Shown here one piece after another: positions 17,729 to 32,832 of a stretch of 64,000 nucleotides of DNA; within the stretch, counting starts at the first letter, position 1, and each line of letters starts with the position of its first letter. The position numbers and the translations under genes were made by a program. Origin of the DNA: Rathayibacter sp. VKM Ac-2754 (GTDB taxonomy: Bacteria > Actinomycetota > Actinomycetes > Actinomycetales > Microbacteriaceae); assembly GCF_009807095.1 (NCBI RefSeq), contig NZ_WUCC01000002.1, positions 372,001-436,000 on the forward strand, read 5' to 3'. The notes under the pieces were generated by a model that worked only from the letters and a program-made list of their open reading frames with translations, had not been told where the DNA came from and did not search any database.

Positions 17729-19263
17729 CACGCCGCACCTCCCCGCAGCACCAGGGCCCGGCCGAGGTGCGACGCCGTCGGTCGATCGACGTCGTCGAGG
17801 TCGGCGAGCGTCCAGCCCAGGCGGAGGACGCGGTCGTAGCCGCGCATCGTCACGAGCCCTCGCTCGAGTGCGCGGTCGAGCACGCGCGACTCGGAGGCGG
17901 ACGGGCGGTGCTCGCCCGAGCGGAGCCAGCTGCCGGCGACCTCGGCGTTGGTCGACCAGGGCGTCCTGCGCAGCCGCTCGGCGGCGCGACCGCGGGCCGC
18001 GACGACGCGGGCTCGCGCCTCGGCGGTCGTGAGGCCGGGCTCGTCGCGACGGGCCGCCAGCTGGGCGGCTCCGATCCTCCGGACCGTGAGCCGGATGTCG
18101 ACCCGGTCGAGCAGCGGACCGCTCAGCCGGGCGAGGTACCGACGACGCAGCGCGGGAGCGCAGGTGCAGGTCTCCCCCGGGATGCCGTGCCGCCCGCAGG
18201 GGCACGGGTTCGCCGCGAGCACGAGCTGCACCCGGGCCGGGAACTCCGCGACGGCGTTCGCGCGGTGGATGCGGATGACCCCGGACTCGAGCGGCTGACG
18301 GAGCGCATCGAGCGCCACCGCCGAGAACTCCGGAGCCTCGTCGAGGAAGAGGATGCCCCTGGTGGCGCGCGCGACGGCGCCCGGACGGATGCGTCCGCTG
18401 CCGCCTCCCACGATCGCCGCGGGCGACGCGGAGTGGTGCGGGCTCTCGAACGGCGGCCGCCGAACGAGGTCCCCGCCGGTCGGTTCGCCGGTCAGCGAGC
18501 GCATGCACGTCGCCTCCAGCGCCGCCTCGTCGTCGAGGTCGGGCAGGATGCCGGGCAGCCGTGACGCGAGCATCGTCTTGCCCGCGCCGGGCGGCCCGAG
18601 CAGGAACACGTGGTGACCGCCCGCCGCCGCGGCGATCATCGCCTCCGCCGCCTCCTCGTTGCCGATCACATCGGAGAAGTCGAGCCGCGACTCAGCCCGG
18701 ATCGGCGGCGCCGATACTGACGCCTCTTCGGGCAACACCGGCACCTCCCACTCCGCGCCGTGCCAGACCGCGGCCGCCGCGAGCGAGGACACCGCGATCA
18801 CCTCCACGCCGTCGACGAGCTCGGCCTCGAGCCGGTCGTCGGAGGGGACCATCACCCGTCGCCGCCCCTCGCGCGCCGCCGCGAGCACCGCGGGCAGCAC
18901 CCCCGGCACCGACCGCAGCCGGCCGTCGAGACCCAGCTCGCCCATGTGCACGACCGACGCGACCGACTCCGCGTTCACCTCCCCCAGCGCCGCCAGCGCC
19001 GCGAGCCCGATCGCGAGATCGAACGCCGACCCGTGCTTCGGCATCGCCGCCGGCGACAGGTTCACGGTGATCTTGTACTCCGAGATCACTGAACCGGAGT
19101 TGATCGCCGCCGACCGCACCCGCTCCTTCGCCTGCGACAGCGCCGCATCCGGCAGCCCGATGATCACCATCCCCGGCGTCCCGTCGGCCGAGTGCGCCTC
19201 CACCCCGACCACCGCGCCCGTGAAGCCCACGAGCCCGACCGACGACGTCCTCCCGATGCCCAT
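17728..19263 (-). CDS. comM: YifB/ComM Mg-chelatase-like AAA+ protein, probably mosaic
   Basis: The 511-residue protein has an N-terminal Lon-like fold domain, then an AAA+ domain with Walker A GPPGAGKT (about residue 220) and Walker B ILFLDEA (about 306-312), and a C-terminal Mg_chelatase_C domain. ComM helicase promotes branch migration in transformation. The start at 19263 overlaps the yraN stop by 1 nt. Bases 18335-18828 are duplicated with clear divergence at 32230-32723, and the copies part exactly at the Walker-B codons. The 5' half of this gene may therefore have come with the adjacent island. Confidence 0.93.
   Translation of the reverse strand: MGIGRTSSVGLVGFTGAVVGVEAHSADGTPGMVIIGLPDAALSQAKERVRSAAINSGSVISEYKITVNLSPAAMPKHGSAFDLAIGLAALAALGEVNAESVASVVHMGELGLDGRLRSVPGVLPAVLAAAREGRRRVMVPSDDRLEAELVDGVEVIAVSSLAAAAVWHGAEWEVPVLPEEASVSAPPIRAESRLDFSDVIGNEEAAEAMIAAAAGGHHVFLLGPPGAGKTMLASRLPGILPDLDDEAALEATCMRSLTGEPTGGDLVRRPPFESPHHSASPAAIVGGGSGRIRPGAVARATRGILFLDEAPEFSAVALDALRQPLESGVIRIHRANAVAEFPARVQLVLAANPCPCGRHGIPGETCTCAPALRRRYLARLSGPLLDRVDIRLTVRRIGAAQLAARRDEPGLTTAEARARVVAARGRAAERLRRTPWSTNAEVAGSWLRSGEHRPSASESRVLDRALERGLVTMRGYDRVLRLGWTLADLDDVDRPTASHLGRALVLRGGAA
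18335..18828 (-). repeat. Left copy of the comM duplication flanking the island
   Basis: This stretch (ComM residues about 146-310) matches 32230-32723 with scattered, mostly synonymous differences. A 20-bp block at its 3' end (18335-18354) is identical to 32230-32249 and beyond it similarity ends. Together the copies look like attachment-site flanks. Confidence 0.85.
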
Positions 19264-19616
19264 CACGCCACCGCACGCAGATGACGCACCTGCGTCGGCA
19301 CACCCTCGGGCGCGATGATTCCCACGGCGTCGATCCGCAGGTGCCGCGACCGCTCGTGATGCTCGTGCGCCCACGCGTACGCCAGCCGCCGCAGCCTCTG
19401 CGCCTTCGCCCGCGTGATCGCCTCGACCGGCAACCCGAATCGGCTCGAGGACCGCGTCTTCACCTCGACCACCACCAGCGCCGCACCCTCACGCGCCACG
19501 ATGTCGAGCTCACCCTCCCGAACCCGCCAGTTGCGATCCAGGATCTCGAACCCGTGCGCCTTCAAGTGCTCCGCCGCGATCTCCTCGCCACGCCGCCCCA
19601 ACTCGTCCTTGTCCAT
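19263..19616 (-). CDS. YraN/UPF0102 family endonuclease-fold protein
   Basis: The 117-residue protein starts at MDKDELGRRGEEIAAEHL, which is the family N-terminus, so the longer upstream frame is rejected. Family motifs LDRNWRVREGELDIVAREG and VVVEVKTRSS give the PD-(D/E)xK-like core (Glu, Asp, ExK). It is coupled to comM by a 1-nt overlap. YraN usually sits beside comM and rnhB. Here it is separated from rnhB by the 13-kb island. Confidence 0.92.
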   Translation of the reverse strand: MDKDELGRRGEEIAAEHLKAHGFEILDRNWRVREGELDIVAREGAALVVVEVKTRSSSRFGLPVEAITRAKAQRLRRLAYAWAHEHHERSRHLRIDAVGIIAPEGVPTQVRHLRAVA

Positions 19617-19782
19617 GCAGAACCTCCCGCACGAACCGTCCCGCAACGGAGGAGTACTGAGGAGGGGACACCCTCCAACCTGTGGAGAGTTCCACCGGAG
19701 GGTCCGTGGGGAGGACAACTAGACGCCCGCCGCCCGGCTCCGCTAGCCGGTCGCCAGGCGGCTACGAAGCGCCTTAGTCGTG

Positions 19783-20366: not shown

Positions 20367-21008
20367 CTAACCACGTCGGCCTCGAAGCGATGACTTGCCG
20401 ACGCGGAACTGGCGTAGGCCGTAGCGCTGGAGCATGTCCTCGGCGAGGTCCTCCACCTTGCGCTCGTGGAGCGAGGCGATGTCGAAGTTCTCGCGATGGC
20501 GCTCGACGCCAGCAAGGCCACCCTCGACGAGGACGTTGCTGAACTCCTCAGGGATGAGCGGAGCTGCGTCGTCTTCCAGGCGCGGTGCTGCCACGCGGTA
20601 GCGAAGACCGATCGTGTAGTCGAGATCGAGTGGACGGTCCCAGTAAAGCTCGCCTGCGTAGTCCGTGTAGGTCGACGGCATGCCGGCTGCGTTGGTGTCG
20701 GGGACTGCGTTGCGCTCGAAGAACGCGCTCGGCTCGACGACCTCTGGCTGACCGTGCGTCGCGGGTGAAGCGACGCTGCTCAGGACGACCTGCAAGATCT
20801 CTTGGTGGCCGATGTCGTACGCGAAGGTCGTGGAGTCGGCGTAGAGCGTCTCGACCAGGCGTGCCTCGGTAAGCGGGAAGCGGTGTCGCCCCAGCACTTC
20901 GTCCTGGGTGCCCTGGAGGTAGCCCCGGACCAGGTCGCGGCTGAACGAAGAGTCTTTCGCCCGTGCGATTACTTTGTCGATGAGTGTGGACACGTTGTAG
21001 TCGGCCAT
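20367..21008 (-). CDS. Phage head-tail adaptor-like protein
   Basis: The 213-residue protein begins MADYNVSTLIDKVIARAKD and is helical and charged throughout. The N-terminal pattern (short helix, L-x-x-A-x-x-D, then RGYLQGTQDEVL) and size fit the phage adaptor proteins that connect the portal to the tail. It lies in the virion module on the same strand as terS and terL. The genes expected between terL and an adaptor (portal, scaffold, capsid) are absent, so the module is broken. Family assignment rests on pattern memory. Confidence 0.55.
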   Translation of the reverse strand: MADYNVSTLIDKVIARAKDSSFSRDLVRGYLQGTQDEVLGRHRFPLTEARLVETLYADSTTFAYDIGHQEILQVVLSSVASPATHGQPEVVEPSAFFERNAVPDTNAAGMPSTYTDYAGELYWDRPLDLDYTIGLRYRVAAPRLEDDAAPLIPEEFSNVLVEGGLAGVERHRENFDIASLHERKVEDLAEDMLQRYGLRQFRVGKSSLRGRRG

Positions 21009-21091
21009 GTTGTTCCCGCGCGACTCGTCCTAGTTGTTTCTAGGATAACAAATCCGATTGCAGCTGCCTAGATCTCGTGTACGATGCGGCC

Positions 21092-21754
21092 ATGCCGTGG
21101 CCCTTCAAGCGTAAACCACCCTTGCCGAAGTACATGCAACGACAGCCGCGTCAGGCTCCTACTTGGCTCAAGTCCGGACTAACGCTCGCGCTTGGAGCAA
21201 TTCTTGCCATCGCTGCCGGCGGCGTGCAGTCTTATATAAGCGGCGATCTCGAATCGGACCGCAATCGAGAGGAGTTTGTCAGAGAGCAACGGGTCCTCGC
21301 ATACTCAGATTTCCGCGCCGCACTACAGCAGCAAGACTCGCTCGTGAGGCAGCTACTACAAAAGGCGAGCAGAAGCTCGGCTTACTCCCTAAACGACTAT
21401 GAAACCGATCTCGTACAACTACAAGAGGCTTCGGATAACCTCGATTCTACTGCTGCGCAGATCGGAATGATTGGAAGCGATGAGACTTCTCAAGCTACCA
21501 ATAGCGCTGTGTTTGCTCACGCAATTTCCTTTGACTCGGTTCGAGATGTATTACTCGACGCAACCACCGAATCTCCTCGGATTAAGGATAGGACGTTCTT
21601 TTCAGACGTAACCTACGCACTGGCTTGCTATTCTGAAAGCTCAGCAACGTTCAACGCGCACGCCCGCGCCGACCTCACCGGCGAAGACTACCAAGGCTCC
21701 TGGTCCGTTACAGACTGTCCGGAAATCTATTTAGCGGACGTGAGTTCGGATTAA
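21092..21754 (+). CDS. Single-pass membrane protein, orphan, on opposite strand in phage module
   Basis: The 220-residue product (ATG at 21092; a GTG at 21077 is possible) has a basic N-terminus (about 30 residues), one TM at about residues 32-50 and a helical domain that is probably extracytoplasmic, with two Cys near the end (ALACYS, TDCPE). Codon use is markedly AT-richer than neighbouring core genes. It lies opposite to, and exactly between, the truncated terL and the adaptor gene, a typical position for an accessory (moron) gene. No family recognised. Confidence 0.6.
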   Translation: MPWPFKRKPPLPKYMQRQPRQAPTWLKSGLTLALGAILAIAAGGVQSYISGDLESDRNREEFVREQRVLAYSDFRAALQQQDSLVRQLLQKASRSSAYSLNDYETDLVQLQEASDNLDSTAAQIGMIGSDETSQATNSAVFAHAISFDSVRDVLLDATTESPRIKDRTFFSDVTYALACYSESSATFNAHARADLTGEDYQGSWSVTDCPEIYLADVSSD

Positions 21755-21769
21755 TACAAGAAAAGGCAC

Positions 21770-22621
21770 TCAGTTGTGCACGGGCATCGTTGCCTCGTAC
21801 GGCACCTTCGCGATGCGCTTGTCCTCCTGCGCCCGCCGCATGGCTGAGCCGAAGTATGCACCAGCGACGGGGCTGTCCCACGAGCAGTAGTACTCCTGGT
21901 CGACGAAGGCATTGGCCTCCTCCTCGCTCTGACCACGCGCCAGGAAGCGTGCCACCGCACCAGCACGGATGCGTTCCATCTGCTCGGGCTTGAAGACGTT
22001 CGTCTCAGTTACGGGCAGGATCGACACGTAGACGGTCGGGTCCTTCTTCCACGCCTCGAGCATGCCCTTGGCGGCGCTGTCGCCGTTGCTGGTCATGTTG
22101 ACGATGAGGATCCCGCCGTTGGCCTCCAGGATCGGCTCGATGATGTCGATGACGCTGGGGTCCATCGCCTGGAACTCGGACAGCACGAAGAGCTTAGAGT
22201 TGCCACCGCGGAGGCGACCCGGCTTGTGCGCTGAGATGATGCGGATCGAGCCGCCTGTGATCAGTTCGATGCGCTTGAGCGAGTCGTTCAGCCCGTCATC
22301 GTTGGCGTGCCGGCGGACGCGTAGGTCCTCGGGCACGAAGTCGGTGAAGCGCAGGCCGTCGTTGGTGTAGCTCTCCCAGAGGTTGTCGCGGCTCATGTCG
22401 CTCGTCGGGAACGCGTACTTGGTGGTCATCGGCTGCTCGGCAGTACGCTCGATCGCCATGTTCCAGTTGGTCATGTCCTTGCCAGCACGGCGGTGCCAGT
22501 TGAAGACGAAGTTGCGGTAGCTCTTGCCCTTGTGCGCACCCGTGCCGTGGAACGCATCCCAGGCGTCCTCCTGGTAGTAGCGCTTCTTGTAGATGTGCGG
22601 GAGCTTGATCTCTACCGCCAC
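21770..22621 (-). pseudogene. Terminase large subunit, truncated after the ATPase domain
   Basis: The 283-residue frame holds the packaging ATPase: HRRAGKD (Walker-A-like, about residue 45), LFVLSEFQAMD (Walker-B region) and a coupling motif IVNMTSNGD. TerL proteins of this type are normally 450 or more residues with a C-terminal RNase-H-like nuclease. Here translation ends PVHN at the point where the nuclease domain should begin. DNA packaging by this protein is therefore unlikely. It is 3 nt after terS. Confidence 0.75.
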
Positions 22622-22624
22622 GAG

Positions 22625-22978
22625 CTAGTCCTCGCTGCGTGTGATGACAGTAACCGTCTGGTCGCTCTTCTCGGCAACCTCGGCGCGGTCCACGTAGTCG
22701 TGCTTCGCGAGCATCAGCTTGGTGATCGTCGCGTTGAAGCGGCCGTAGAGGCCACCGTTGATGAGGCGGTGCGCTTGGATCTGCATTACACGGTCAAAGA
22801 TGTGGGAAAACTCCTTGCCCATCGGAGTGTCAATCTCAGCCCACGCGTAAAGCGTAGTGCGATCGATGTCGAGGTAGAGACCAGGACCCTCACGAGTAGG
22901 TAGCTCCGCAATGCATTGATCAGCGTAGCGTGCGGCGCGGTCTAGCATTTTTTGCGTCAGTTTAGTGGGTCTTGCCAT
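22625..22978 (-). CDS. Terminase small subunit-like DNA-packaging protein
   Basis: The 117-residue protein reads MARPTKLTQKMLDRAARYAD, then LYLDIDRTTLYAWAE, a helix-turn-helix-like stretch, and FNATITKLMLAKHDYVDR. These are characteristic of phage small terminase subunits that bind the packaging site and dock TerL. It lies immediately before terL on the same strand, as expected. With TerL truncated it probably no longer packages DNA. Confidence 0.7.
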   Translation of the reverse strand: MARPTKLTQKMLDRAARYADQCIAELPTREGPGLYLDIDRTTLYAWAEIDTPMGKEFSHIFDRVMQIQAHRLINGGLYGRFNATITKLMLAKHDYVDRAEVAEKSDQTVTVITRSED

Positions 22979-22987
22979 ATGCCTTTG

Positions 22988-23530: not shown

Positions 23531-24102
23531 AGCTCACCCGTCCGCTTCTGCTCTCGCATGTTTGCGACAACCCTCTGTCGGTGGAGTTCCATCCTCACAT
23601 CGAAGAGCTTCGCCTCCAGCCAGCTCATCTGCCGCTGCTTTGTTCTCCACGCCTCTAGCCACCGTCGCGAATGGTACGAACCATCCTTCAGACGGCGGTG
23701 CCACCTACGACCGTTCCCGTCTGAAAAGCTGATGACGGGGTCGTACTTCTCGGGATGAATTGATTCGTCAATAGAAGTCATCTTGGACTCCCCTGGCTCG
23801 AGCACGAGATCCATCACAGGAAGGCTAACTGGCGCAATGCTCTCGTACCGATATTGATCCTGGTCGTCGAAATAGCCGACTGAGGCAGAGTAGATAGGTG
23901 AGTCGCCAGTGTTGTGCGCGATAATCTCGAAGGTTGTAATCTCCGTATCGACATCCTGTGCAAGATGAGAGACGACGCGGAACCGCTCAGCGAGGGCTCT
24001 CTTCTTCTCGGCAACATCGCGCCTCCAGAGGTAGGCACCGCCGATGAAAGTGGCAGCTGTGGCGGTCGAACCGACCCACTCTGCCCATGACCCAAGTTCC
24101 AT
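23527..24102 (-). CDS. Single-pass membrane protein with beta-rich domain (architecture family member 2)
   Basis: This is a 191-residue protein. MELGSWAEWVGSTATAATF starts a TM (about residues 8-26) followed by WRRDVAEKKR and a beta-rich domain containing EIIAHNTGDSPIYSASVGYFD, parallel to NVHNSGTEPIIWASVAG in its partner. A Trp/Arg-rich segment and a basic helical tail follow. It is the first gene of a translationally coupled pair (4-nt overlap). A duplication with strong divergence is likely. No function known. Confidence 0.65.
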   Translation of the reverse strand: MELGSWAEWVGSTATAATFIGGAYLWRRDVAEKKRALAERFRVVSHLAQDVDTEITTFEIIAHNTGDSPIYSASVGYFDDQDQYRYESIAPVSLPVMDLVLEPGESKMTSIDESIHPEKYDPVISFSDGNGRRWHRRLKDGSYHSRRWLEAWRTKQRQMSWLEAKLFDVRMELHRQRVVANMREQKRTGEL

Positions 24103-24111
24103 GCCCGGAGC

Positions 24112-24366
24112 CTAGCGTTGACCTCCGACGACGTAGTCCAGCAGCTCCTTGGCATGGCAGCGCGTGCACCCTCGCACCACGAAGTGAGCCGAGCCGTGGA
24201 ACCGAGCGTTCTCGACCACTACCGTCTGCTTGAACGAGGCCCACGTGTGCATGCATCCGTTGGCCTTGGTACGAGACGCCACCCGAGCCTGCGACGCAGC
24301 CCTGACCCGAGCGTGCAGCTCAGCGCGGAGGGTGTCGAGGTCCCTGGGGCTCTGACCTACCACCAC
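24112..24366 (-). CDS. Small Cys/His-containing phage protein
   Basis: The product is about 84 residues from a GTG that overlaps the end of the lysozyme-like gene. A helical N-terminus (LRAELHARVRAASQARV) is followed by CMHTWASFK and CTRCHAKEL, which could form a zinc site, around a beta-rich middle. It resembles small actinophage proteins of unknown role. The start is uncertain because there are several GTGs in a row. Confidence 0.5.
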   Translation of the reverse strand: MVVGQSPRDLDTLRAELHARVRAASQARVASRTKANGCMHTWASFKQTVVVENARFHGSAHFVVRGCTRCHAKELLDYVVGGQR

Positions 24367-24955
24367 GTGTTCTCCTTGAACACCGTGCCGTAGTTGTTGG
24401 TGCAGTGTCCGGTGCAGGACCAGTACGCGGCGGCAGCCACCCATGAGCCGTAGCGCTCACGCATGTAACCCGTGAACCAGTCGTCCTGGCAGGCGTAGTC
24501 GGTCAATGAACACGGGAGCTTGCTGCACGGGAGGGCCTGGCCGATCCCGCACGCACCAGACGACGGGTTGATCGCGTCTGGACGGTTGCCGCTCTCGTGC
24601 TGGTAGACGAACGCCTTGGCCTCCGCTTCAGCGTCGATGGCCGGCGCTGCTGTTGAGACAGAGGCTGTGAGCTCGTCTGAGGCCTGCTGGGGCTCGGTGA
24701 GCGCTTCAGGTGGTTCTGGTGCCGTCTGGATGATGGGCGCGGTAGAGACGGCTTCTACTAGCGTTGCTCTAAAGACCCTGCGGCGACCGCTTGCTCGATC
24801 TGGCTCACGTTGTGTGAACGGAGGGTCCAGCCGGTGATGATGCCAGCGAGGGCGAAGGTCATGATGGCGACGATGAACCATGGGAGCGAGACGCTCAACG
24901 CAATGGTTCGAGGCTTTTTTGGTAGGGATGGTTCTTGTGTGTTGGTAGTGCTCAT
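24357..24955 (-). pseudogene. Membrane-anchored transglycosylase-like protein, frameshifted
   Basis: An N-terminal frame (MSTTNTQEPSLPKKPR, then one TM, SQIEQAVAAGS) starts at 24955 with an AAGGA site and stops at about 24761. A second frame begins within the same stretch (RATLVEAVSTAPIIQ), continues through a Pro/Glu linker and ends in a lysozyme-like domain (YQHESGNRPDAINPSSGACGIGQALPCSKL). Joining them needs a single-base shift near GGGTCTTTAGAG. The result would match the chromosomal transglycosylase-like protein at 6.2-6.9 kb in design. Either a mutation inactivated it or a ribosomal slip occurs. Confidence 0.65.
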
Positions 24956-24975
24956 ATTCAATTTTCCTTGCTTAT

Positions 24976-25003
24976 CCATAGTCCGGGAATTTCCGGACTA
25001 TGG
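24976..25003. promoter_or_regulatory. Perfect 11-bp palindrome before the lysozyme-like gene
   Basis: CCATAGTCCGG and CCGGACTATGG flank a 6-nt AT-rich loop, just after a 22-codon open frame and 21 bp before the downstream ATG. It could be a terminator/attenuator hairpin or a dyad operator. No U tract follows it on the minus strand. Confidence 0.5.
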
Positions 25004-25024
25004 ATTTTATTACTTTAGTTGTGC

Positions 25025-25093
25025 TTACTTGACTATTACGAACGTGATCTTATTGGGTGCTCGGTAGTCTGTGATTGCTATTAGGTTAGTCAT
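25025..25093 (-). CDS. 22-residue leader-type peptide
   Basis: ATG at 25093 with AGGAAA 7 nt upstream, encoding MTNLIAITDYRAPNKITFVIVK and ending TAA at 25025. It sits directly between a good promoter and the palindrome before the lysozyme-like gene. The arrangement looks like a leader peptide plus hairpin. There is no run of one amino acid to suggest classical attenuation. Confidence 0.4.
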   Translation of the reverse strand: MTNLIAITDYRAPNKITFVIVK

Positions 25094-25124
25094 GTTGGTG
25101 TTTCCTGTTTATTTGACTGTCTTT

Positions 25125-25153
25125 AGTTAAACACAAGCGTTACATAAAGTCAA
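25125..25153 (-). promoter_or_regulatory. Predicted sigma-70-type promoter
   Basis: On the minus strand TTGACT (25153-25148), a 17-nt spacer and TTAACT (25130-25125) precede the leader peptide and lysozyme-like gene. The surrounding AT-rich stretch (about 25000-25160) contrasts with the rest of the window. Confidence 0.6.
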
Positions 25154-25159
25154 TACTAT

Positions 25160-25993
25160 TTATGTGCGATATGGTGCTTCGCTGGCATATACCTTCACAA
25201 ACCTCTTGAAGCCCAAATCGTTATCGAGCGCCATTCTGATTCCAAACACGGTTTCACTGGTTGCTCCGGGACCGAGAATTACTTCTCGGAGAGGATAGAA
25301 TCCGTCCGCATCAACAGGCCAAGCCAATGACTTGTATCCCATGATTCCTCGCCGACCGTTGCGTACCTCCATCCGCTCACTCTCGACCGAGCCAATTAGC
25401 CGGATCTCTCGCTCTTCTGCAAACGCCTTATGCTTCAAGACGGGAGACTCCCATCCAACCTCGCTTCCGATGGCGTCATACACACGGAGCCAGTGCGGGT
25501 CCTCGTTGTAAGCTCCAGTTCGAATTCTTGCAAGAGCCCGACTAATAATGCCATTCATCAAATCGCTGGCAGTACCAGCATCGTAGATACACTCGCGGAG
25601 CTTCCACTGGTATATGTCCTCAAACATGGACCGGTCAAATCCGAGGGCATAGCCTTGGCCGGGACCGGTGTATCCACGCCACTGACTCAGGGAGTCAGGG
25701 TCTGAGGAGAACGAGACGATGCAGTTGCCGTGGTAAGGCATGTTGTCCAAGTACTCGGCTGCGTGTAGCATCCCGATAACGACGTCATCATTCTCAGGTT
25801 TCTGAGCTTCAAGCTGAAGCGCCGTAGACATGAGTCGGTGAAACTGAAGCAGCTCTTCCGTGTCATTCAAATGAAAAGTGTGCGAAGCCCAAAACTCGCG
25901 ACTCTTGAGCATCCCAAGGGCACCAGCCGCATCGGTGTAGTGCCACATGAGGTCCGAGGGGACAGGACCGGTCCGCGTCTCCAGCTCGTACAT
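25160..25993 (-). CDS. DUF2971 family protein
   Basis: The 277-residue protein starts MYELETRTGPVPSD. DUF2971 hallmarks are visible: WHYTDAAGALGML near the start, SREFWASHTFHLNDTEEL, and SFSSDPDSLSQWRGYTGPGQGYALGFD in the middle. The family's biochemical role is not established to my knowledge. It lies beside a small conserved actinobacterial gene on the minus strand and is AT-richer than the core genome. It is cytoplasmic by composition. The longer upstream frame overlaps the neighbouring gene and is rejected. Confidence 0.8.
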   Translation of the reverse strand: MYELETRTGPVPSDLMWHYTDAAGALGMLKSREFWASHTFHLNDTEELLQFHRLMSTALQLEAQKPENDDVVIGMLHAAEYLDNMPYHGNCIVSFSSDPDSLSQWRGYTGPGQGYALGFDRSMFEDIYQWKLRECIYDAGTASDLMNGIISRALARIRTGAYNEDPHWLRVYDAIGSEVGWESPVLKHKAFAEEREIRLIGSVESERMEVRNGRRGIMGYKSLAWPVDADGFYPLREVILGPGATSETVFGIRMALDNDLGFKRFVKVYASEAPYRT

Positions 25994-26010
25994 GCGCTCG
26001 ACGCTACATG

Positions 26011-26313
26011 TCAGACCCGTCGCACCGCATTTGCCCACACCCACGCATCGAGCTTCGTGCCGTTCGACATGCTCCACTCGATGTGCACCGCTCGGTCGGT
26101 CCACTCCACCGCGAACGCGTCGGTGATGACGGGCTGCTCCTGGAAGCGCACCCAAGCCCGCACGGGAACAGCCGGCCCTCGACGGATCGGATGGTTGGCT
26201 TCGTCGAGCTCAGCGGGCGTGAGGGACACGGGCTCAGGCCTGACCGCCGCCTCCGACACGCGCTGCTGCGTCATACGGTCGTAGTGGTCCTCGTAGCGTC
26301 GGTTCGATCCCAT
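26011..26313 (-). CDS. Small conserved actinobacterial protein
   Basis: The 100-residue protein starts MGSNRRYEDHYDRMTQQRV. The pattern SLTPAELDEANHPIRRGPAVPVRAWVRF, then VEWTDRAVHIEWS and VWANAVRR, is one I recall from many actinobacterial chromosomes and prophages. It is beta-rich, small and basic. Function unknown. It is 17 nt upstream of the DUF2971 gene and probably in the same transcript. Confidence 0.65.
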   Translation of the reverse strand: MGSNRRYEDHYDRMTQQRVSEAAVRPEPVSLTPAELDEANHPIRRGPAVPVRAWVRFQEQPVITDAFAVEWTDRAVHIEWSMSNGTKLDAWVWANAVRRV

Positions 26314-26379
26314 GGCGTCAGACGGTAGTCGAACGTATGTTCGAACGCGAGCGAATGCGGCGTGTCCTACGGTGGTGCC

Positions 26380-26964
26380 ATGACAACGGCAGAGACGGTC
26401 AACGCGTTCCTTCCCCTGCTGTCGATCCCGCTCTTCACAGCAGCCGTTGTCGCCCTCGTACCAATTGCGATACCGACGATCCGTTGGAACCGACGCCTCA
26501 AGAACGAGCTTGCGGTGCTGAAGGATCTCCCGGACGGCGAGCAAAAGGATCGCTTTGAAAGACGCATCGTGGCACAGGCCAAGCGGCTCAACGATTACCA
26601 CGAGCTGATTCCAATCCACGAGAAGGTTCTCACTTGGGTCTCAGTACCCGTGTTTGTCGGACTCACAACTATTACCGCCTTGCAGTGGGACGCGTTTGGC
26701 GAATTCTCGATCCTCGATAATCTTCTGACGGCTCTTGTGATACTCATCGGTTTTGCGGCCACTTTGGGAGCGTTCACCGGACGTACTTCTGGGCTTATGA
26801 ATGGAGAAGCGTACCGCGCTTACATGCGAAACGAAATAAAGGGCATGAAACGTCAGACTGCCAGAAGAACCGCGCGTCGTAGGCTCAGGGGCATGAAGAA
26901 AGCAGAAAAGCGTGCCAACGCAAACAGACCCACTGTCGAGCGCGTAACAGGCTCGGGGAGTTAG
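26380..26964 (+). CDS. Two-region integral membrane protein with basic tail
   Basis: About 194 residues from the ATG at 26380 (a GTG at 26362 is the alternative). TM1 is at about residues 9-33, a charged helical stretch (about 35-85) follows, then TM2 and TM3 at about 92-150, and a strongly basic helical tail (KRQTARRTARRRLRGMKKAEKR). It points away from the DUF2971 block. No family recognised. A phage membrane accessory protein is possible. Confidence 0.6.
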   Translation: MTTAETVNAFLPLLSIPLFTAAVVALVPIAIPTIRWNRRLKNELAVLKDLPDGEQKDRFERRIVAQAKRLNDYHELIPIHEKVLTWVSVPVFVGLTTITALQWDAFGEFSILDNLLTALVILIGFAATLGAFTGRTSGLMNGEAYRAYMRNEIKGMKRQTARRTARRRLRGMKKAEKRANANRPTVERVTGSGS

Positions 26965-27360
26965 TACTGAAGCATTCCCTTAGTGGGGTGCAGTCGGTCG
27001 GTTCTTCAAGGATAGCTTGAGTAGCAACTCCCTCATGATCAGTTGAGCACATGTTGCGCACGTTCTGAGCATGTTCTGAACCAGGTTGTGAAGGTGCGCG
27101 GGTTGTTTCCCTTTGATCCCATCAGTACAAAGCAGGCTTTACGATAGCCGAAACACACGCTCCAACTAACGACTGGATTGCGACTTTGAGTCAGTTCTTC
27201 TCTGTACCGACTATTTCGTCGAAGAATGGTATTGACTATTTAGAACATAAGCGCATAATGAGAAGCAGGTAAGACGCGGGACACCAAATAGGTCCGACAG
27301 CGATCCGCCAGAACTCATCAACTTAAATACCGAAGGGGGACGCATAAAGGATATTCACAC
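26965..27360. other. Non-coding AT-rich region upstream of the recombination operon
   Basis: 396 bp without a supportable gene. It contains one good promoter close to its right end and otherwise no recognised site. Confidence 0.5.
27232..27260 (+). promoter_or_regulatory. Predicted promoter of the ERF operon
   Basis: TTGACT at 27232-27237, a 17-nt spacer, then ATAATG at 27255-27260. It lies 100 bp before the first gene of the plus-strand operon. Confidence 0.55.
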
Positions 27361-27645
27361 ATGGAAGAGCAGAACAACTGGCGCATATACAAGAAGCAGC
27401 ACGGACGCCAGCAGATCAAGGCTAGCGACAAATGGGAACCAGCACTCCGCCAGGCGTTGCAGGACCTCGCAGACAGCGAGACACAGCGCTTAGGTAGGAA
27501 GATCTCGGTCTCAACCGTCGTCAGCAACCTCATGACACGCAACGGTGCGTTCGCGATCGAGAAGCGCAAGGAGCTTCGCAAGAACTATTTACAACTGAAG
27601 AAGGAGAACACCAATGACAGCAGAAGGGAGCATCGAGGGCAGTAA
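27361..27645 (+). CDS. Small basic protein before the ERF gene
   Basis: The 94-residue protein is very rich in Lys, Arg and Gln. The middle (ALRQALQDLADSETQRLGRKISVSTVVSNLMTRNG) looks like a ribbon-helix-helix or short helical DNA-binding module. Its 3' end overlaps the ERF gene by 32 nt, so translation is coupled. As first gene after the promoter it may be a regulator of the early operon. This is inference. Confidence 0.6.
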   Translation: MEEQNNWRIYKKQHGRQQIKASDKWEPALRQALQDLADSETQRLGRKISVSTVVSNLMTRNGAFAIEKRKELRKNYLQLKKENTNDSRREHRGQ

Positions 27646-28222
27646 GCTCGCCGCCGCACTAGTCGGCTTCCGAGCGGACGTGCCCGTAGTCAAGCGCAAC
27701 GCCACTGGTCAGGCTGGCTCACGCACGTACAAGTACGCCGACCTGGCCACAGTAGAAGAGACGGCTCAGCCGCACTTGGCGAAGCACAGGCTCGCAGTAA
27801 CGCAGCCGATCGACACCGGTGAGGACGGCTTCAACTACCTCCGCACCGTGATCCGACACGAGTCTGGTGAGCGAGAGGAATCGAGGATTCGCATCCCGCT
27901 GGAAGGCGTAACGCCTCAGCAAGCAGGGTCGGTCATCACCTACTACCGTCGCTACGCGTTCACCACGAACCTTGGCATTGCCGTGGAGGGTGAGGACGAC
28001 GACGGGGACGCAGGCAATGACGCAAAGCTACCGGCCGTTCGAACACCCGCAGCATCATCGAACAAACCAGCGACGGAGAAGCAGCTCAACCTCATCGGGA
28101 CCCTAGCCATGCGAAAGGGCAAAGACGAGGAGTGGTATCTGGCCGCGCTTGAGAAGGTTCGAAACAGTGCCGACGCCTCAGCAATAATCAACAAGCTGAG
28201 CGAGCTTGAGGACGCACAGTAA
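27614..28222 (+). CDS. ERF-family single-strand DNA annealing protein
   Basis: The 202-residue protein shows the ERF core: RNATGQAGSRTYKYADLATVEE, HLAKHRLAVTQPI, and SVITYYRRYAFTTNLGIAVEGEDDDGD, with the last acidic motif typical of the family. The C-terminal 60 residues are a separate helical region. ERF proteins anneal complementary single strands in phage recombination, like RecT or Red-beta. No partner exonuclease is adjacent, though a VRR-NUC nuclease lies 1.1 kb downstream. Confidence 0.85.
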   Translation: MTAEGSIEGSKLAAALVGFRADVPVVKRNATGQAGSRTYKYADLATVEETAQPHLAKHRLAVTQPIDTGEDGFNYLRTVIRHESGEREESRIRIPLEGVTPQQAGSVITYYRRYAFTTNLGIAVEGEDDDGDAGNDAKLPAVRTPAASSNKPATEKQLNLIGTLAMRKGKDEEWYLAALEKVRNSADASAIINKLSELEDAQ

Positions 28223-28822
28223 TGCAGGTCTTCGAGTACTACAGCGACCGCGAAGGGTGAAGAGGGCGAGGCCGCGCCAGCACCCGATGCCGAGCCCGAG
28301 CAGCCGATGGTGGTGCGCCGATTCAAGGTGGTGCGAGCGCTGTTCCACTACGCCCAGGTGGCCGGCGAGGGTGGTCTACCACCGTACGTGCCGCCCAACT
28401 GGGACGAGACACGAGCCCTCGAGACACTCGACATCACTGAGGAGCCGTTCGCGCTCTACAACGGCAACATCATGGGCTACTCGTACGACCGGACCATCGC
28501 CGTCTCCCCCGTTGCGCCGTACCCGTTCAAAACGAAGATCCACGAGCTCGGCCACGTTGAGCTTGGGCACACCGGGGACGCTCCCGACGAGGAAGAAGAG
28601 CCGGGAACCATGCACCAGGGCATCGGTGAGTTTCAAGCGGAGTCCACCGCGTACCTGACGTTGCATCAGCTAGGTGCCGAGGACCAGATGAACGCGAGCG
28701 AGAGCCGCGCCTACGTGCAGCACTGGCTACGCGGAGGTGAACCGTCCGAGGTTGATGTCCGCCAGGTCTTCAGCGCTACGGATCGGATCGTTAGAGCCGG
28801 GCAAGAGCCAAGGGAAGAATAG
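28223..28822 (+). pseudogene. ArdC-like antirestriction protein, N-terminus lost
   Basis: From 28307 the frame encodes 171 residues with a zinc-metallopeptidase motif HELGHVELGHT and EFQAESTAYL, plus the linker and KVVRALF-type strand that in ArdC proteins precede them. ArdC's N-terminal single-strand-DNA-binding domain is missing. Upstream, the frame stays open without a start to 28223, while an ATG at 28223 opens a different frame that stops after 12 codons. This looks like a deletion joining the start of one gene to the 3' part of ardC. A shortened product from 28307 is possible. Confidence 0.65.
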
Positions 28823-29258
28823 CATTGACCGACTTAAGCAGAAATGCGAATATCAGAGTGTCCCGCAAGACAAACGGCGGTGAGCGTCAATATCGTGGCA
28901 GACGTTTCATGTGCTCAACGTAACAAGCACAGCCGCCTCGCACCTTTCACAACCGGATCAACGACAGACATGCACGCAACAAGCGTGAGAGAAGTACGCT
29001 AGGTCAAAGTTTAGGCCGATGACGGCGGAGTACCGAGAGGTCCCGCACGGGCGATCCTTCGTCCGATAACCGTCCCCACTGTGAGGTGCAAGTCCTCACC
29101 TCGCGAGGCAGTCGTTGAGCCGTCTGGCTCGTTCGCCGTCGCCGCCCATGTTGAGAGGCGGGGACAGGACGGTCCAGACGGGCGCGCGATTTCAGGCGTC
29201 CCCCTGATCGTGCGCTTCAGCCAGTGGTCGACCAGGCAACTACCCACCGTCTCGTCGA
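28823..29258. other. Non-coding GC-rich stretch with local hairpins
   Basis: About 436 bp between the ArdC fragment and the nuclease gene. It holds a short hairpin (GTGAGG/CCTCAC with a 7-nt loop at about 29081-29099) that resembles a tRNA T-arm, but no complete tRNA can be folded around it. A 78-codon minus frame (29011-29247) has a good ribosome site yet no recognisable protein features. Confidence 0.4.
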
Positions 29259-29303
29259 CCTCCTAGTTCCGCGCATACCTCGCAGGTGCGTGGAACTAGG
29301 AGG
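29259..29303. repeat. Perfect inverted repeat carrying AGGAGG on both strands
   Basis: Arms CCTCCTAGTTCC (29259-29270) and GGAACTAGGAGG (29292-29303) pair perfectly over 12 bp and extend inward by about 5 further pairs. Each arm carries a Shine-Dalgarno core on its own strand. If transcribed rightward the hairpin would hide the ribosome site of the downstream nuclease gene. Confidence 0.7.
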
Positions 29304-29360
29304 ACACAGCAATACCAATCCACTCCCCCATCCTCAGAGCCGGCCGTCGTGCGTAGGGCG

Positions 29361-29744
29361 ATGCTGCCCAACAGCGAGTCTGTGATCCAGCAGCGCGTCT
29401 GCCTCTATCTGGCCACGCACTACCCGGACGTCATCTTCCGCTCCGACTTCGCGTCGGGCCTGAAGCTGTCGATCGCGCAGGCGTCGCTCCACAAGAGGCT
29501 CCAGTCAAGCAGGGCGTGGCCAGACCTGCACATCGTCGAGCCGCGCGGTGAACACGCTGGCCTCTTCATCGAGCTCAAGCGCGAGGGTGTCGTCGTCTTC
29601 AAGCAAGACGGAACGCTGCGCGCTGACGAGCACCTCAAGGAGCAGGCGGCGATGCTCGCTTCACTACGGGCGCGTGGGTACCGAGCTGAGTTCGCGATCG
29701 GCTACGACGCGGCCGTGGCGTTGATCGAGTCGTACCTCTCTTAA
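29361..29744 (+). CDS. VRR-NUC domain nuclease
   Basis: The 127-residue protein (ATG at 29361; a GTG at 29286 or 29349 is possible) carries the VRR-NUC signature: SVIQQRVCLYLATHYPDVIFRSD, WPDLHIVEP with catalytic Asp, GLFIELKREG with the ExK pair, and HLKEQAAMLASLRARGYRAEFAIGYD. Stand-alone VRR-NUC proteins are common phage nucleases in replication and recombination modules, probably cutting branched DNA. The strong AGGAGG at 29298 is 57 nt from this ATG, so the true start may be further upstream. Confidence 0.8.
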   Translation: MLPNSESVIQQRVCLYLATHYPDVIFRSDFASGLKLSIAQASLHKRLQSSRAWPDLHIVEPRGEHAGLFIELKREGVVVFKQDGTLRADEHLKEQAAMLASLRARGYRAEFAIGYDAAVALIESYLS

Positions 29745-29805
29745 TGCGGCTGGAACTGCACGCCCAACCGGACGTGCTGACCACCCACGATCACTAGGAG
29801 ACCTC

Positions 29806-30285
29806 GTGACCAAGGCCATCGTCCTGCCCGCAACGGACGCCCCGTACCTCGTCGACCTCAACAGCGCAGCGGACATCCACGCACTCGTCGAAGGCTGGTT
29901 CGAGATCCTCGATCTCGCCACACCGGACGCGACGCTCTGGATCAACGACGAAGCAGCGATCGACGGCAAGAGCTGGAACAAGCACGCGATGTGGCTGCTC
30001 GTCGTTCACTCCGTACACCCGACCACGAACCCGTTCCTTCGCGGAACCATGGTGCTCACCGGACCCATGAGCACCAACGAGGACGGACTGTCAGATGTTG
30101 ACGACTACTACGTCGATCTGATGTTCCCGTCGAAACGGCTGACGGTGCACGTGCAGCGAGCGAACAGCGACGAGTGGATCGACATGCGCATGCCGTTCGA
30201 CACGTGGCGTTCTGCGTACAACGCTGCGCTGAATGTGCAAGGCGCGCACGAAGACATCACGAAATTTAAAGTTGTACCAAAATGA
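29806..30285 (+). CDS. DUF3846-like phage protein
   Basis: The 159-residue protein starts MTKAIVLPATDAPYLVDL with an AGGAG site upstream. The N-terminal half (ALVEGWFEILDL, ATLWINDEAAIDG, NKHAMWLLV, GTMVLTGP) matches the pattern of DUF3846 proteins seen in actinophage early regions. A second half of about 60 residues follows without an assigned domain. Function unknown. A strong terminator follows immediately. Confidence 0.7.
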   Translation: MTKAIVLPATDAPYLVDLNSAADIHALVEGWFEILDLATPDATLWINDEAAIDGKSWNKHAMWLLVVHSVHPTTNPFLRGTMVLTGPMSTNEDGLSDVDDYYVDLMFPSKRLTVHVQRANSDEWIDMRMPFDTWRSAYNAALNVQGAHEDITKFKVVPK

Positions 30286-30295
30286 TCGTGGGGAG

Positions 30296-30324
30296 CCCCG
30301 CAGCGTATTTTGCTGCGGGGTTTT
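30296..30324 (+). terminator. Rho-independent terminator of the early operon
   Basis: CCCCGCAGC and GCTGCGGGG flank a 7-nt loop followed by TTTT, 11 nt after the DUF3846 stop. This is a textbook intrinsic terminator. Confidence 0.9.
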
Positions 30325-30620
30325 CTAACTGTAGAACTTATTCACTGTAAAACGTTGAGCTCGTAATCAACCTTGATTTGTATCCAGCGATCTCGTTTTA
30401 CACCGCCTACGTAAACTAATCGCGACACTTAGTCAAGACTCAGCTCGAACTCGCCTTGGATTGGCCTTCCATAAGCGGGGCATAGGTGCTAGAGTCCTAC
30501 TTGTCTCTTCGAACAGAAGGGCCGGCCATCCTCTCGGACGGCCGGCCCTTTTTGTGACCGCAAGTTCCCGCTTGCGACCCACCTTGCAATATCTACGCAA
30601 AATCCCTAGGAGGACTTCAC
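30325..30620. other. Intergenic region with a short possible transcript
   Basis: About 300 bp of mixed composition between two terminators and the 47-residue membrane peptide gene. No protein gene is supported. A short RNA could be made between about 30490 (GTGCTAGAGT, a possible -10 region) and the GC-rich terminator at 30517-30553. Confidence 0.35.
30517..30553 (+). terminator. GC-rich terminator or attenuator upstream of a membrane peptide gene
   Basis: An 11-bp stem AAGGGCCGGCC/GGCCGGCCCTT with a 12-nt loop is followed by T residues. It lies about 68 bp before the next start codon, so it may attenuate that gene. Confidence 0.85.
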
Positions 30621-30764
30621 ATGCTGAAGTTTACACGAAAAATTAAAAACTCGCAGGGCGAGTCTACAACGACGAAGTTCTCGATTACAACCTCGTTCGT
30701 CGTTCAAGGCCTGGCTGCATTCGGTACGTTCCTCGTGATCGTGATGCAGTACTGGCCGTTCTAA
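30621..30764 (+). CDS. 47-residue single-pass membrane peptide
   Basis: ATG with a perfect AGGAGG 7 nt upstream. A basic Lys/Thr-rich N-terminus (MLKFTRKIKNSQGESTTTKF) is followed by one hydrophobic segment of about 20 residues ending MQYWPF at the very C-terminus. It is framed by an upstream terminator and a downstream hairpin, so it is an isolated single-gene unit. Size and topology resemble holin-like or toxin-like small membrane peptides. No family recognised. Confidence 0.55.
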   Translation: MLKFTRKIKNSQGESTTTKFSITTSFVVQGLAAFGTFLVIVMQYWPF

Positions 30765-30772
30765 ATGAAGGG

Positions 30773-30821
30773 GCCCCTACCACCGGCGAGCCTTCGGGTC
30801 GCTCAAGCTGGTAGTAGGGGC
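30773..30821. terminator. Convergent hairpin terminator
   Basis: GCCCCTACCACC pairs with GGTAGTAGGGGC across a 25-nt loop that itself holds GCCTTCGGGTC. It lies between the convergent membrane peptide gene and the minus-strand gene ending at 30835. Confidence 0.75.
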
Positions 30822-30834
30822 GTCGGTGGACCGT

Positions 30835-31143
30835 TCAGGAGCCAGGCTTGTAGCCCTTGCGACGACCCTTGAGGCCGTCAGCGTTCTCCAGGACGGCGCT
30901 GATGTTCGGAGCGAGCTTGTTGAACTCGGCCACGGAGACGACCATCTCGGTCGTCTCGCCGTTGCGGATCTCCAGCGCCACCAAGTTGCTGGCGGGCTTC
31001 AGATCCTTGACCTCAGACGGAAGCGCGTCGAACTGCTTCGGCTCGTCGAGGTCGGGGTGGCTGCGGACGACAATCGTTACGATCTCGTCCTCGGTCGCTT
31101 CGGCCCCGGTGAGGTCCGAGACCCTGATCTGGCGGAACCCCAT
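30835..31143 (-). CDS. Small phage protein of unknown function
   Basis: The 102-residue protein starts MGFRQIRVSDLTGAEATEDEIV with an AAGGAG site 11 nt upstream. The middle (VVRSHPDLDEPKQFDALPSEVKDL) and VALEIRNGETTEMVVSVAEFNKLAP are beta-rich, and the tail is basic (LKGRRKGYKPGS). It reads like actinophage small proteins placed near lysogeny regions. No domain recognised. Confidence 0.65.
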   Translation of the reverse strand: MGFRQIRVSDLTGAEATEDEIVTIVVRSHPDLDEPKQFDALPSEVKDLKPASNLVALEIRNGETTEMVVSVAEFNKLAPNISAVLENADGLKGRRKGYKPGS

Positions 31144-31281
31144 GGGGATCGCACTCCTTTTTGTCGGTGGTCTTCACGGGATGTGTCGACCTGCCACTAG
31201 TAAGAAGCATGCGCGCTAGATCGTAAACCGTAGAAATTACAACAGACTTAAGGATCTCTGTTTGAGACAATAGATGTACAC

Positions 31282-31428
31282 ATGCAAGACCAGTTCGACC
31301 TCACCACTTACGTCAGCGAATCCACTCAAGCGAGCGCTGTTCCGTTGATGGTCGAAAACCGCGACGTACTTGCCTCGATCGCGACGATGGTTTCGAAGCG
31401 TCGAAATCAGACCCCCGCGTCTAACTAG
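31282..31428 (+). CDS. Possible 48-residue protein
   Basis: The frame MQDQFDLTTYVSESTQASAV ends TAG at 31428, overlapping the convergent gene's stop by 4 nt. No ribosome site precedes it. It could be a real small protein, because the frame fills a gap exactly, or chance. Confidence 0.3.
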   Translation: MQDQFDLTTYVSESTQASAVPLMVENRDVLASIATMVSKRRNQTPASN

Positions 31429-32156
31429 CCCTCGTCAGGGGTGCTCTGCTCTTCGGCTTTCGCCCTTCGAGCATCACGCTTCTTTCTGTACGTCAGCATC
31501 GTGGTGGCATCGGCCTGGGCGCCGTCGTGCCCAAAAGTACGCAGACCGTGGTGAAGCGGGTCGGTCCACTTGTCGGTGTTCTTCTTAATTGCAACTACAG
31601 CTTCAGCTAGCTCATTCAGTCCCTTGCGGGTTATCCAACTCTGGTGCATGTAGACGTGCCAGTCCAGAACGACTTCGGTCGTCAATTTCTCGTTGTCGAT
31701 CCCGTCGTAGGTGATCGTGCCCGTGTGGCGGTGCGGCAGACCTGCCTGATGGCGCTCAAGGTGCGCATCCCAGAACGTCCGATACTCCTGACCCGGCGCG
31801 AGCGCCGGAATGAAGTGCGGGAACATGAGGAACTCGGGCTCGCCATTGTTGCTCGTCTTCAGGTCAGAGTCCGTCTCGAAGCTGACGTTGCGCGCTATCG
31901 TCTGCCCGTAGTTACGGATAACGAGGTCCATGAATCCTTGAAGGTACGGCACCGGCTCCATGGAAACGACCACGTACGGCTGAGACCGAGCACGGTCAAG
32001 ATCCGCGGTCAGTCTTCGCGCCTCGCGGGCTTCCTTCACCTGCCGCGCTCCAAAGATCCACGCAACGACGAAGGCTGCTGCTGCCACGAGGCCAGTGCCG
32101 AGTGTCGACCATGCGGACAGCGCGTCGAGGGCGGCTGAAGTCTGGTCGGGTGTCAT
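31425..32156 (-). CDS. Single-pass membrane protein with beta-rich domain (architecture family member 3)
   Basis: The 243-residue protein begins MTPDQTSAALDALSAWSTLG. One TM (about residues 17-38) is followed by a charged linker helix (RQVKEAREARRLTADLDRARS) and a beta-rich domain (PYVVVSMEPVPYL, VIRNYGQTIARNVSF, PALAPGQEYRTFWD), with a basic C-terminus (RKKRDARRAKAEEQ). The same frame is open upstream into the comM fragment, so a longer in-frame fusion exists on paper. The layout matches the pair at 22988-24102. Function unknown. Confidence 0.65.
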   Translation of the reverse strand: MTPDQTSAALDALSAWSTLGTGLVAAAAFVVAWIFGARQVKEAREARRLTADLDRARSQPYVVVSMEPVPYLQGFMDLVIRNYGQTIARNVSFETDSDLKTSNNGEPEFLMFPHFIPALAPGQEYRTFWDAHLERHQAGLPHRHTGTITYDGIDNEKLTTEVVLDWHVYMHQSWITRKGLNELAEAVVAIKKNTDKWTDPLHHGLRTFGHDGAQADATTMLTYRKKRDARRAKAEEQSTPDEG

Positions 32157-32229
32157 AGGTGCATCCTGCCAGGGACCTCCGACACAGCTCTCGCAGGAGC
32201 GGACAGCGTGGTGTACTTTGCAGCTCCAC

Positions 32230-32723
32230 GCCTCGTCGAGGAAGAGGATCCCCCTGGTGGCGCGCGCGACGGCGCCGGGCCGGATGCGTCCGCTACCGCC
32301 TCCGACGATCGCCGCGGGCGACGCGGAGTGGTGCGGGCTCTCGAACGGCGGCCGCCGCACGAGGTCACCGCCGGTCGGTTCGCCGGTCAGCGAACGCATG
32401 CACGTCGCCTCCAGCGCCGCCTCGTCGTCGAGGTCGGGCAGGATGCCGGGCAGCCGCGACGCGAGCATCGTCTTGCCCGCGCCGGGCGGCCCGAGCAGGA
32501 ACACGTGATGCCCACCCGCGGCCGCAGCGATCATCGCCTCCGCCGCCTCCTCATTGCCGACCACGTCGGAGAAGTCGAGCCGCGACTCCGCCCGGACCGG
32601 CGGCCCCGGCACCGCCGCCTCCGCGGGAAGCACCGGCACCTCCCACTCCGCTCCGCGCCAGACCGCGACCGCCGCGAGCGAGGACACCGCGATCACCTCC
32701 ACCCCATCGACGAGCTCGGCCTC
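32230..32723 (-). pseudogene. comM: comM fragment at the right end of the island
   Basis: Encodes ComM residues about 146-310, including Walker A GPPGAGKT and ending at Walker B LFLDEA, where it switches into island sequence (LDEAWSCKVHH). It lacks the first 145 codons and everything after Walker B. It differs from the intact comM at many third positions, so it is not a recent copy of it. It lies where yraN-comM would follow DUF2469 in an uninterrupted locus, so it is most likely the native remnant. Confidence 0.85.
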
Positions 32724-32734
32724 ACAGGGAGATG

Positions 32735-32774: not shown

Positions 32775-32832
32775 ACAGCTATTCGATCAGCCCGGATAGT
32801 GCACGCCGTGGCTCAGGAGCGACGAAGTCGTC

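What the first reader, a model, noticed from the sequence alone, without database searches (positions are those of the whole stretch)
18335..32723. A phage-derived island is flanked by two diverged copies of the same comM segment
Bases 18335-18828 and 32230-32723 encode the same part of ComM (about residues 146-310) and are clearly related but differ at many third positions, so they are not a recent duplication. They share a 20-bp identical block (18335-18354 and 32230-32249) at the Walker-B codons, beyond which similarity ends. The likely reading is integration at that conserved DNA by an element bringing its own comM 5' part, leaving an intact but mosaic comM on the left and a remnant on the right. 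comM is a known island target elsewhere (AbaR islands in Acinetobacter and some Tn7-like elements). A Walker-B crossover with a long replacement segment would be unusual.
Basis: partly seen in the sequence, partly recalled or inferred. Interest (0 to 1): 0.85.

Follow-up and report, generated by a model that had tools for sequence, protein, structure and literature searches.

The report
Phage scar beside a rescued comM
A virus once cut a bacterial DNA-recombination gene in two, and what we see now is a crippled part of that virus lying between a dead piece of the gene and a complete copy, the two versions of which seem to come from different but closely related strains.

Summary
Bases 18335-18828 and 32230-32723 are 461/494 identical, differ mostly at third positions, and stop exactly at the Walker-B codons. 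The right edge is the attachment scar of a phage large serine recombinase (LSR): the 23 bp outside comM match, but for one base, the end of a 43-kb viral contig (G274) that is patchily collinear with the island and splits comM at the same codons, with an LSR at its other end. comM is split at these codons in 13 of 249 sampled Microbacteriaceae genomes; an LSR-like gene lies near one end at 9 of the 9 fetched. Best reading: the prophage split comM; recombination with a close relative's DNA, one homologous and one illegitimate join, left a whole yraN-comM beside the LSR-less prophage. LSR attack on comM is known; the rescued-gene-plus-scar anatomy is the less expected part.

The parts
17728..19263 (-). 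complete comM (511 aa; ChlI, Mg_chelatase and Mg_chelatase_C domains), 3' part joined without interruption to the left 5' copy
18335..18342 (-). crossover core (codons D309-E310-A311, GACGAGGC on the coding strand) inside intact comM; no phage half-site here
18335..18828 (-). left copy of comM codons 146-310
19263..19616 (-). yraN (UPF0102), overlapping the comM start; about 85-90 bp of upstream DNA alignable with relatives follows, then the island
19690..19715 (.). left join (exact base ambiguous): yraN upstream DNA to prophage DNA; the prophage-side position differs between G003 and G008
20367..21008 (-). SU10-like head adaptor protein
   Evidence: PF24175 E 6.8e-10
21770..22621 (-). terminase-large-like ORF by position and look only
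   Evidence: no family match; inference
22625..22978 (-). terminase small subunit (GP3_package)
   Evidence: E 1.3e-15, E 1.2e-5
24357..24881 (-). phage transglycosylase-like protein
   Evidence: E 2.4e-8
27614..28222 (+). Erf-like single-strand annealing protein
29286..29744 (+). phage nuclease-like protein (phrog_824; weaker Holliday-junction-resolvase match)
24100..32229 (.). stretch patchily collinear (69-85% identical pieces) with G274 positions about 13.65 kb down to 0.2 kb
32207..32229 (-). phage half-site of the LSR attachment site, one base different from that of G274; close matches in G005 and G008
32230..32723 (-). right copy: comM codons 146-310, remnant
32727..33156 (-). native flank resumes (intergenic DNA, DUF2469 gene)

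Best explanation
A temperate phage of the G274 kind integrated by its large serine recombinase into the Walker-B codons of comM, splitting it; the right junction is the surviving half of that event. Recombination with DNA of a closely related strain then placed a complete yraN-comM on the dprA side: one end by homology, the other by an illegitimate join between the DNA just upstream of yraN and the inside of the prophage. This restored comM, removed the LSR end of the prophage (the island is 12.5 kb, G274 42.6 kb) and left the old 5' part of comM as a decaying remnant beyond the island. Shown: the right scar, the missing left half-site, the absence of an LSR, copies that diverged mostly under selection. 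Inferred: the order of events, the illegitimate join, and which copy is the newcomer; the reverse (part of a prophage plus a relative's comM 5' part recombined in beside an intact comM) fits equally well. The route of the DNA (transformation, transduction, conjugation) is open.
For: Same attachment half-site and collinearity with the full-length LSR prophage G274, which splits comM. At the 10 Walker-B splits whose two ends I fetched (9 family genomes and G010) an LSR-like gene is near one end in 10 of 10 by tblastn (several matches are distant, 23-26% identity; Pfam domains were checked only for G010 and G274); the cut in codons 309-311 was read on both sides at 9 of them. Searched with one LSR (G010's), the window's genome gives only two weak matches, E 2.2e-5 and 2.9e-5. 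Left junction is continuous comM. L/R: dS 0.205, dN/dS 0.12; polarised by G003, L has 10 synonymous and 1 nonsynonymous change, R 10 and 8, 4 unassigned; 8 or fewer of 18 is unlikely for a copy dead throughout (P 0.01). L and R are sisters (98/99). Island genes are on the whole less diverged than comM/yraN between window and G005. Same anatomy in G005 (R copy complete with yraN) and G008; G003 has related island DNA upstream of yraN without a comM remnant. Mirror case in another genus: G223 has an arm resembling other LSR arms by eye, a frameshifted comM 312-402 remnant, then yraN and intact comM, the copies 84% identical.
Against: No donor and no intermediate (split comM in the same species, or the join without the scar) was found. 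The yraN-side end of the left join falls in the same short region in four genomes, which independent illegitimate joins need not do, though a need to keep the yraN promoter would force it. In G005 the tree cannot say which copy is native (G005_R with G014 90/90; L with R p-AU 0.124, L with G014 p-AU 0.051), nor do distance ratios. Gene conversion between L and R could blur dates. The polarisation rests on one outgroup and 29 assigned changes. Natural transformation of Rathayibacter was neither tested nor searched for.
Confidence: 0.7

Rival explanations
1. Element-borne 5' replacement: the phage carries its own comM 5' part plus yraN and rebuilds comM on integration.
For: Gives the same gene order; in G005 the element-side copy is the one outside the G014 pair (weak).
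Against: G274: comM matches only at its two edges, LSR directly beside comM 3'; yraN was not searched in the middle of that record. Left half-site missing in the window. comM/yraN dS larger than most island dS. The comM scan of IMG/VR gave 5 loci of 47-55% identity and the phage collection 30 records, all under 60%: no Rathayibacter-like comM 5' part in a phage was found by these scans; G274's edge piece was found only by its half-site.
Confidence: 0.08
2. Defective-transducing form: aberrant excision took comM 5'-yraN with the LSR-less part of the prophage, and the circle re-entered other cells by one homologous crossover in comM-yraN (Campbell type).
For: Explains in one illegitimate step the missing LSR, the missing left half-site and two full-length copies as in G005.
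Against: Predicts an L/R mosaic with a switch point; sliding identities in G005 show no clean one; differing prophage-side joins (G003 against G008) need several such events or later deletions.
Confidence: 0.12
3. Old vertically inherited insertion, with copies kept similar by gene conversion and lost in relatives by recombination between the direct repeats.
For: Island present in several species at the same place; 1.3-kb direct repeats in G005 could recombine.
Against: Most island genes are less diverged between window and G005 than comM/yraN, and island contents differ between G003/G008 and G000/G005.
Confidence: 0.08
4. Plain tandem duplication in the window's own lineage followed by decay of the right copy.
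For: L and R are sisters.
Against: dS 0.205 with dN/dS 0.12 and an open frame in the remnant.
Confidence: 0.02

Closest known systems
Large serine recombinase elements in the magnesium chelatase/ATP-dependent protease (comM/yifB) gene (Durrant et al. 2022, PMC10083194; passages seen)
   Same: Target gene and enzyme class; the passage says homologs of this gene are significantly enriched among targets and hit by 12.4% of predicted site-specific integrases
   Different: In the window no LSR is left and comM is whole again. That the paper's gene is comM/yifB is my reading of its annotation
Phage WO sr1WO in the Wolbachia magnesium chelatase gene (PMC9203015; passages seen)
   Same: Serine-recombinase prophage with portions of the gene on either side
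   Different: No second, intact copy of the gene is described in the passages seen
AbaR and other elements in comM as blockers of transformation-mediated curing (PMC4774983, PMC11472951; passages seen)
   Same: comM interrupted by mobile DNA; PMC11472951 raises recovery of comM by recombination and reports it no more often than chance
   Different: Other site (Acinetobacter phage records split at residues 285-288) and Tn7-like elements; here the scar and the rescued gene stand side by side
SXT-type elements that supply a new 5' end of prfC (recalled, from no call)
   Same: Outcome: intact gene plus displaced 5' part
   Different: Here the full-length relative shows no comM 5' part of its own

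Membership tests
LSR prophage integrated in comM | LSR gene at one end of the element | tested here: not met
   none among the island ORFs scanned; window genome searched with one LSR gives only E 2e-5 matches; present in collinear G274
LSR prophage integrated in comM | phage half-site next to comM 5' part | tested here: met
   32207-32229, one base from G274
LSR prophage integrated in comM | phage half-site next to comM 3' part | tested here: not met
   comM continuous at 18335
LSR prophage integrated in comM | phage gene content collinear with a full-length relative | tested here: met
   window 24100-32229 against the 17.5 kb of G274 held
Target-gene-rebuilding integrative element (SXT/prfC type, recalled) | full-length element carries the replacement gene part | tested here: not met
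   G274: comM only at the edges, LSR then comM 3'; yraN not searched in its middle
Target-gene-rebuilding integrative element (SXT/prfC type, recalled) | replacement part shares the element's phylogeny | tested here: not met
   support rather than proof
AbaR/Tn7-like island in comM | transposition genes | tested here: not met
   no transposase among the 15 island ORFs scanned
AbaR/Tn7-like island in comM | same insertion point in comM | tested here: not met
   285-288 in Acinetobacter records against 309-311 here
Gene rescue by homology-facilitated illegitimate recombination | one homologous and one illegitimate join | tested here: inconclusive
   left join has no shared core and varies on the prophage side; donor not found

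The most novel reading that the evidence does not exclude
These loci are fossils of repeated comM rescue: phages that break the gene are answered, in separate lineages, by import of a second intact yraN-comM that also cripples the prophage. Three Rathayibacter genomes (G000, G005, G008), probably a fourth (G003), and one of another genus (G223) would then show selection for comM written in the genome itself.
Probability: 0.3. Interest if true: 0.7.

Novelty: new variant of a known kind. Interest (0 to 1): 0.5.

Why it matters
A gene of this kind is hit by 12.4% of predicted site-specific LSRs (PMC10083194, passage). Whether broken comM is regained by recombination is an open point raised in print (PMC11472951, passage). 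A split-gene scar next to an intact copy from another strain can date and orient such a regain, which a clean repair cannot. It also warns against calling a duplicated target-gene part 'element-borne' without the full-length element.

Tried and rejected
Phage-borne comM 5' part: I first took L129 (IMG/VR 3300036819_000183) as proof, since comM codons 13-323 stand beside an LSR inside the contig; the whole record also holds codons 321-510 about 17 kb away, so it looks like an ordinary split gene and I dropped it. Two Evtepia phage records carry a 299-aa ORF like ComM 5-304; no LSR hit in the stretches held, not followed further.

Distant-species origin of the left copy: rejected by tree and distances. 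Mosaic switch point in G005: no clean one. Deciding the native copy by distance ratios: undecided. The second and third trees were lost to a script error and not rerun. Rescued against split, Rathayibacter 3:1 and other genera 1:13, Fisher p 0.019, is not used as evidence: the groups were drawn after seeing the data, and G003 and G007 were left out. The half-site pattern search in 249 genomes gave 4 hits: G000 and G008 without mismatch, G018 and G062 with 3 mismatches and no link to comM known; the reversed control pattern gave 2. In IMG/VR the shorter pattern gave 12 stretches, 1 of them (L182) with a comM match. LSR relatives in IMG/VR: 9 loci for the G010 LSR (not examined), only itself for the L129 LSR. 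Of 13 family splits 9 had their ends fetched; G094, G173, G197, G235 have their halves on different contigs and were not fetched, so their cut points were not read. re-searched 30 handles (24 family genomes with more than one match besides G000 and G008, 5 more family genomes, and G032 of another family); splits with one half missing would be undercounted. G115, G260 (cut near residue 349) gave no LSR hit.

Literature: searches listed no paper on comM in Rathayibacter or on a rescued comM beside a prophage scar as far as titles and abstract starts show; the library is open-access only. Curtobacterium prophage paper PMC9862828: term search gave no chelatase, serine, integration-site or attachment hit, and its 8 'comm' hits are other words.
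Full report
Observation. The two segments are real: 461 of 494 identical, ungapped, similarity ending at the 20-bp block on one side and at 18828/32723 on the other. Differences fall 5, 4 and 24 on codon positions 1, 2 and 3; dS 0.205, dN 0.026. The left comM is complete (511 aa, three Mg-chelatase-type domains); the right piece is a remnant.

Where it lies. The genome is a Rathayibacter: contigs of same-genus genomes have the same lengths as named records (G001 C2 and L047 R. iranicus, 356,070; G010 C31 and L118 Rathayibacter sp. VKM Ac-2630, 47,245). In the empty site (G011) the order is dprA-comM-yraN-DUF2469-rnhB. In the window it is dprA-comM-yraN-island-comM(146-310)-DUF2469. DUF2469 was found in 15 of 15 genus genomes and comM in 14 of 15. 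Elements at this locus: G000, G005, G008, G003 with intact comM; G010 with comM split at codons 308-311 by a 12-kb element carrying an LSR; G007 with comM cut at residue 222 beside related DNA. No match to the window island at this locus in G001, G002, G004, G006, G009, G011, G012, G014, although G004, G001, G014, G006 and G002 hold roughly 1.5-4.7 kb of other DNA between yraN and DUF2469 that I did not study; G013's contig begins 1.3 kb from DUF2469 and its assembly gave no comM match.

A hot spot. In 249 Microbacteriaceae genomes (a sample, window genome included) 230 had a comM match; in 13 it is split at about the Walker-B codons: G070, G083, G085, G094, G108, G154, G165, G173, G197, G217, G220, G235, G253 (a lower bound). 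I fetched both ends of 9 of these 13 and of G010. An LSR-like protein is encoded near one end at 10 of 10 (in G085 1.6 kb away, several matches only 23-26% identical). The cut could be read on both sides at 9 (G165 on one side), always in codons 309-311, GACGAGGC in the window with variants elsewhere. Published work reports this kind of gene as an enriched LSR target, 12.4% of predicted site-specific integrases (PMC10083194, passage).

The parent prophage. The DNA just outside the right remnant, 32207-32229, recurs with small changes in G005 and G008 and, in IMG/VR, at the edge of a 42,997-bp contig (L182/G274). That contig runs from comM codons 242-311 (90% identical to the window's protein) through about 42.6 kb to an LSR (Resolvase, Recombinase and zinc-ribbon domains) and comM codons 306-367 (94%). 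Its first 13.6 kb are patchily collinear with window 24100-32229, pieces 69-85% identical (I hold its first 17.5 and last 1.7 kb). So the island is the comM-5' end of such a prophage with the LSR end missing. Searched with the G010 LSR, the window's genome gives only matches of E 2e-5 or weaker.

Why the left edge is not a phage product. Integration leaves a phage half-site at both ends. G274 has one at each; the window has only the right one. At 18335 comM runs on unbroken.

Origin of the copies. L and R are sisters (98/99); pairing either with G003 is rejected (p-AU 0.005 and 0.002). dS between them is about half that of L to G003 over the same codons (0.205 against 0.38). Polarised by G003: L 10 synonymous and 1 nonsynonymous, R 10 and 8, 4 unassigned; a copy dead since the split would show 8 or fewer nonsynonymous of 18 with probability 0.01 (one outgroup, small counts; the L/R contrast itself is not significant, Fisher p 0.096). 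So one copy most likely came from another, closely related lineage. Which one is undecided: in G005 the tree puts R with G014 (90/90) but alternatives stand (p-AU 0.124, 0.051), and distance ratios do not settle it.

Did comM travel with the element? Window against G005, 14 island genes tried: 8 kept with dS 0.25, 0.51, 0.16, 0.54, 0.44, 0.30, 0.16, 0.07 (median 0.28; the 0.54 gene, g26011, aligns only in part, median 0.25 without it); two badly aligned ones (g23527, g31425; 2.41 and 1.46) set aside; four without a counterpart. comM5' L 0.59, comM3' 0.67, yraN L 0.56; against the R side comM5' 0.53, yraN 0.41, DUF2469 0.21, rnhB 0.38. The comM 5' part follows the host more than the element. 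Host genes themselves span 0.21-0.67, so this is support, not proof.

A mirror case. G223, another genus: DUF2469, 5.3 kb not searched for families, an arm that by eye resembles those of G085/G217/G070/G165, a frameshifted comM 312-402 remnant, then yraN and intact comM, 84% identical to the remnant over 302 bases. Again a scar beside an intact yraN-comM, but with the other part of the gene left.

Mechanism. The most economical account is LSR splitting and recombination with a relative's DNA, one join by homology and one illegitimate. Illegitimate joining helped by homology at one end is described for natural transformation and conjugation (PMC3240628, abstract start in the listing only). The alternatives and their weights are in the rivals list.

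Verdict. A remnant of a known kind of element at a known target, with an uncommon and informative outcome: comM whole, prophage without its recombinase. Interest is moderate because LSR attack on such genes is established; it would rise if more strains showed repeated, directional rescue.

Noticed in passing
L132 6389-7288; L133 4205-5104: Two Evtepia phage genomes (PV036427, PV036445) encode a 299-aa ORF like ComM 5-304, ending just before the Walker-B codons, inside the phage genome: a possible true phage-borne comM 5' part.
   Followed up: partly
L134 7941-8501 and 8461-10101: Acetoanaerobium phage ANDSL2_ph1 has a 186-aa ORF like ComM 191-356 converging on its LSR gene.
   Followed up: partly
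L129 (record G275): comM split near residue 323 with an LSR beside the 5' part, but what look like phage tail genes lie directly upstream of the truncated comM 5' part; unexplained.
   Followed up: partly
L039, L038, L171: Other comM insertion points with an LSR-like gene beside them: near residues 80 (G032), 480 (G018) and 215-226 (G148); near residue 349 (G115, G260) no LSR hit.
   Followed up: no
window about 19675-19715 and the same place in 8 other genomes: A conserved TGTGGAGG box (plus strand) about 85-90 bp upstream of yraN, its place in the window ambiguous; the other strand resembles a DnaA box from memory only.
   Followed up: no
L142: G007 keeps comM codons 1-222 and yraN, but no comM 3' part or dprA was found in the 18.5 kb held.
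   Followed up: no
window 21077-21754, 22988-24102: Several small ORFs of no known family, membrane-protein-like by eye, sit among the packaging genes, one on the opposite strand; similar-looking ones are in G005 and G008.
   Followed up: no
window 32734-32769: REP-like repeat just beyond the remnant; similar repeats seen by eye between yraN and DUF2469 in G005, G006, G007, G010, G011.
   Followed up: no
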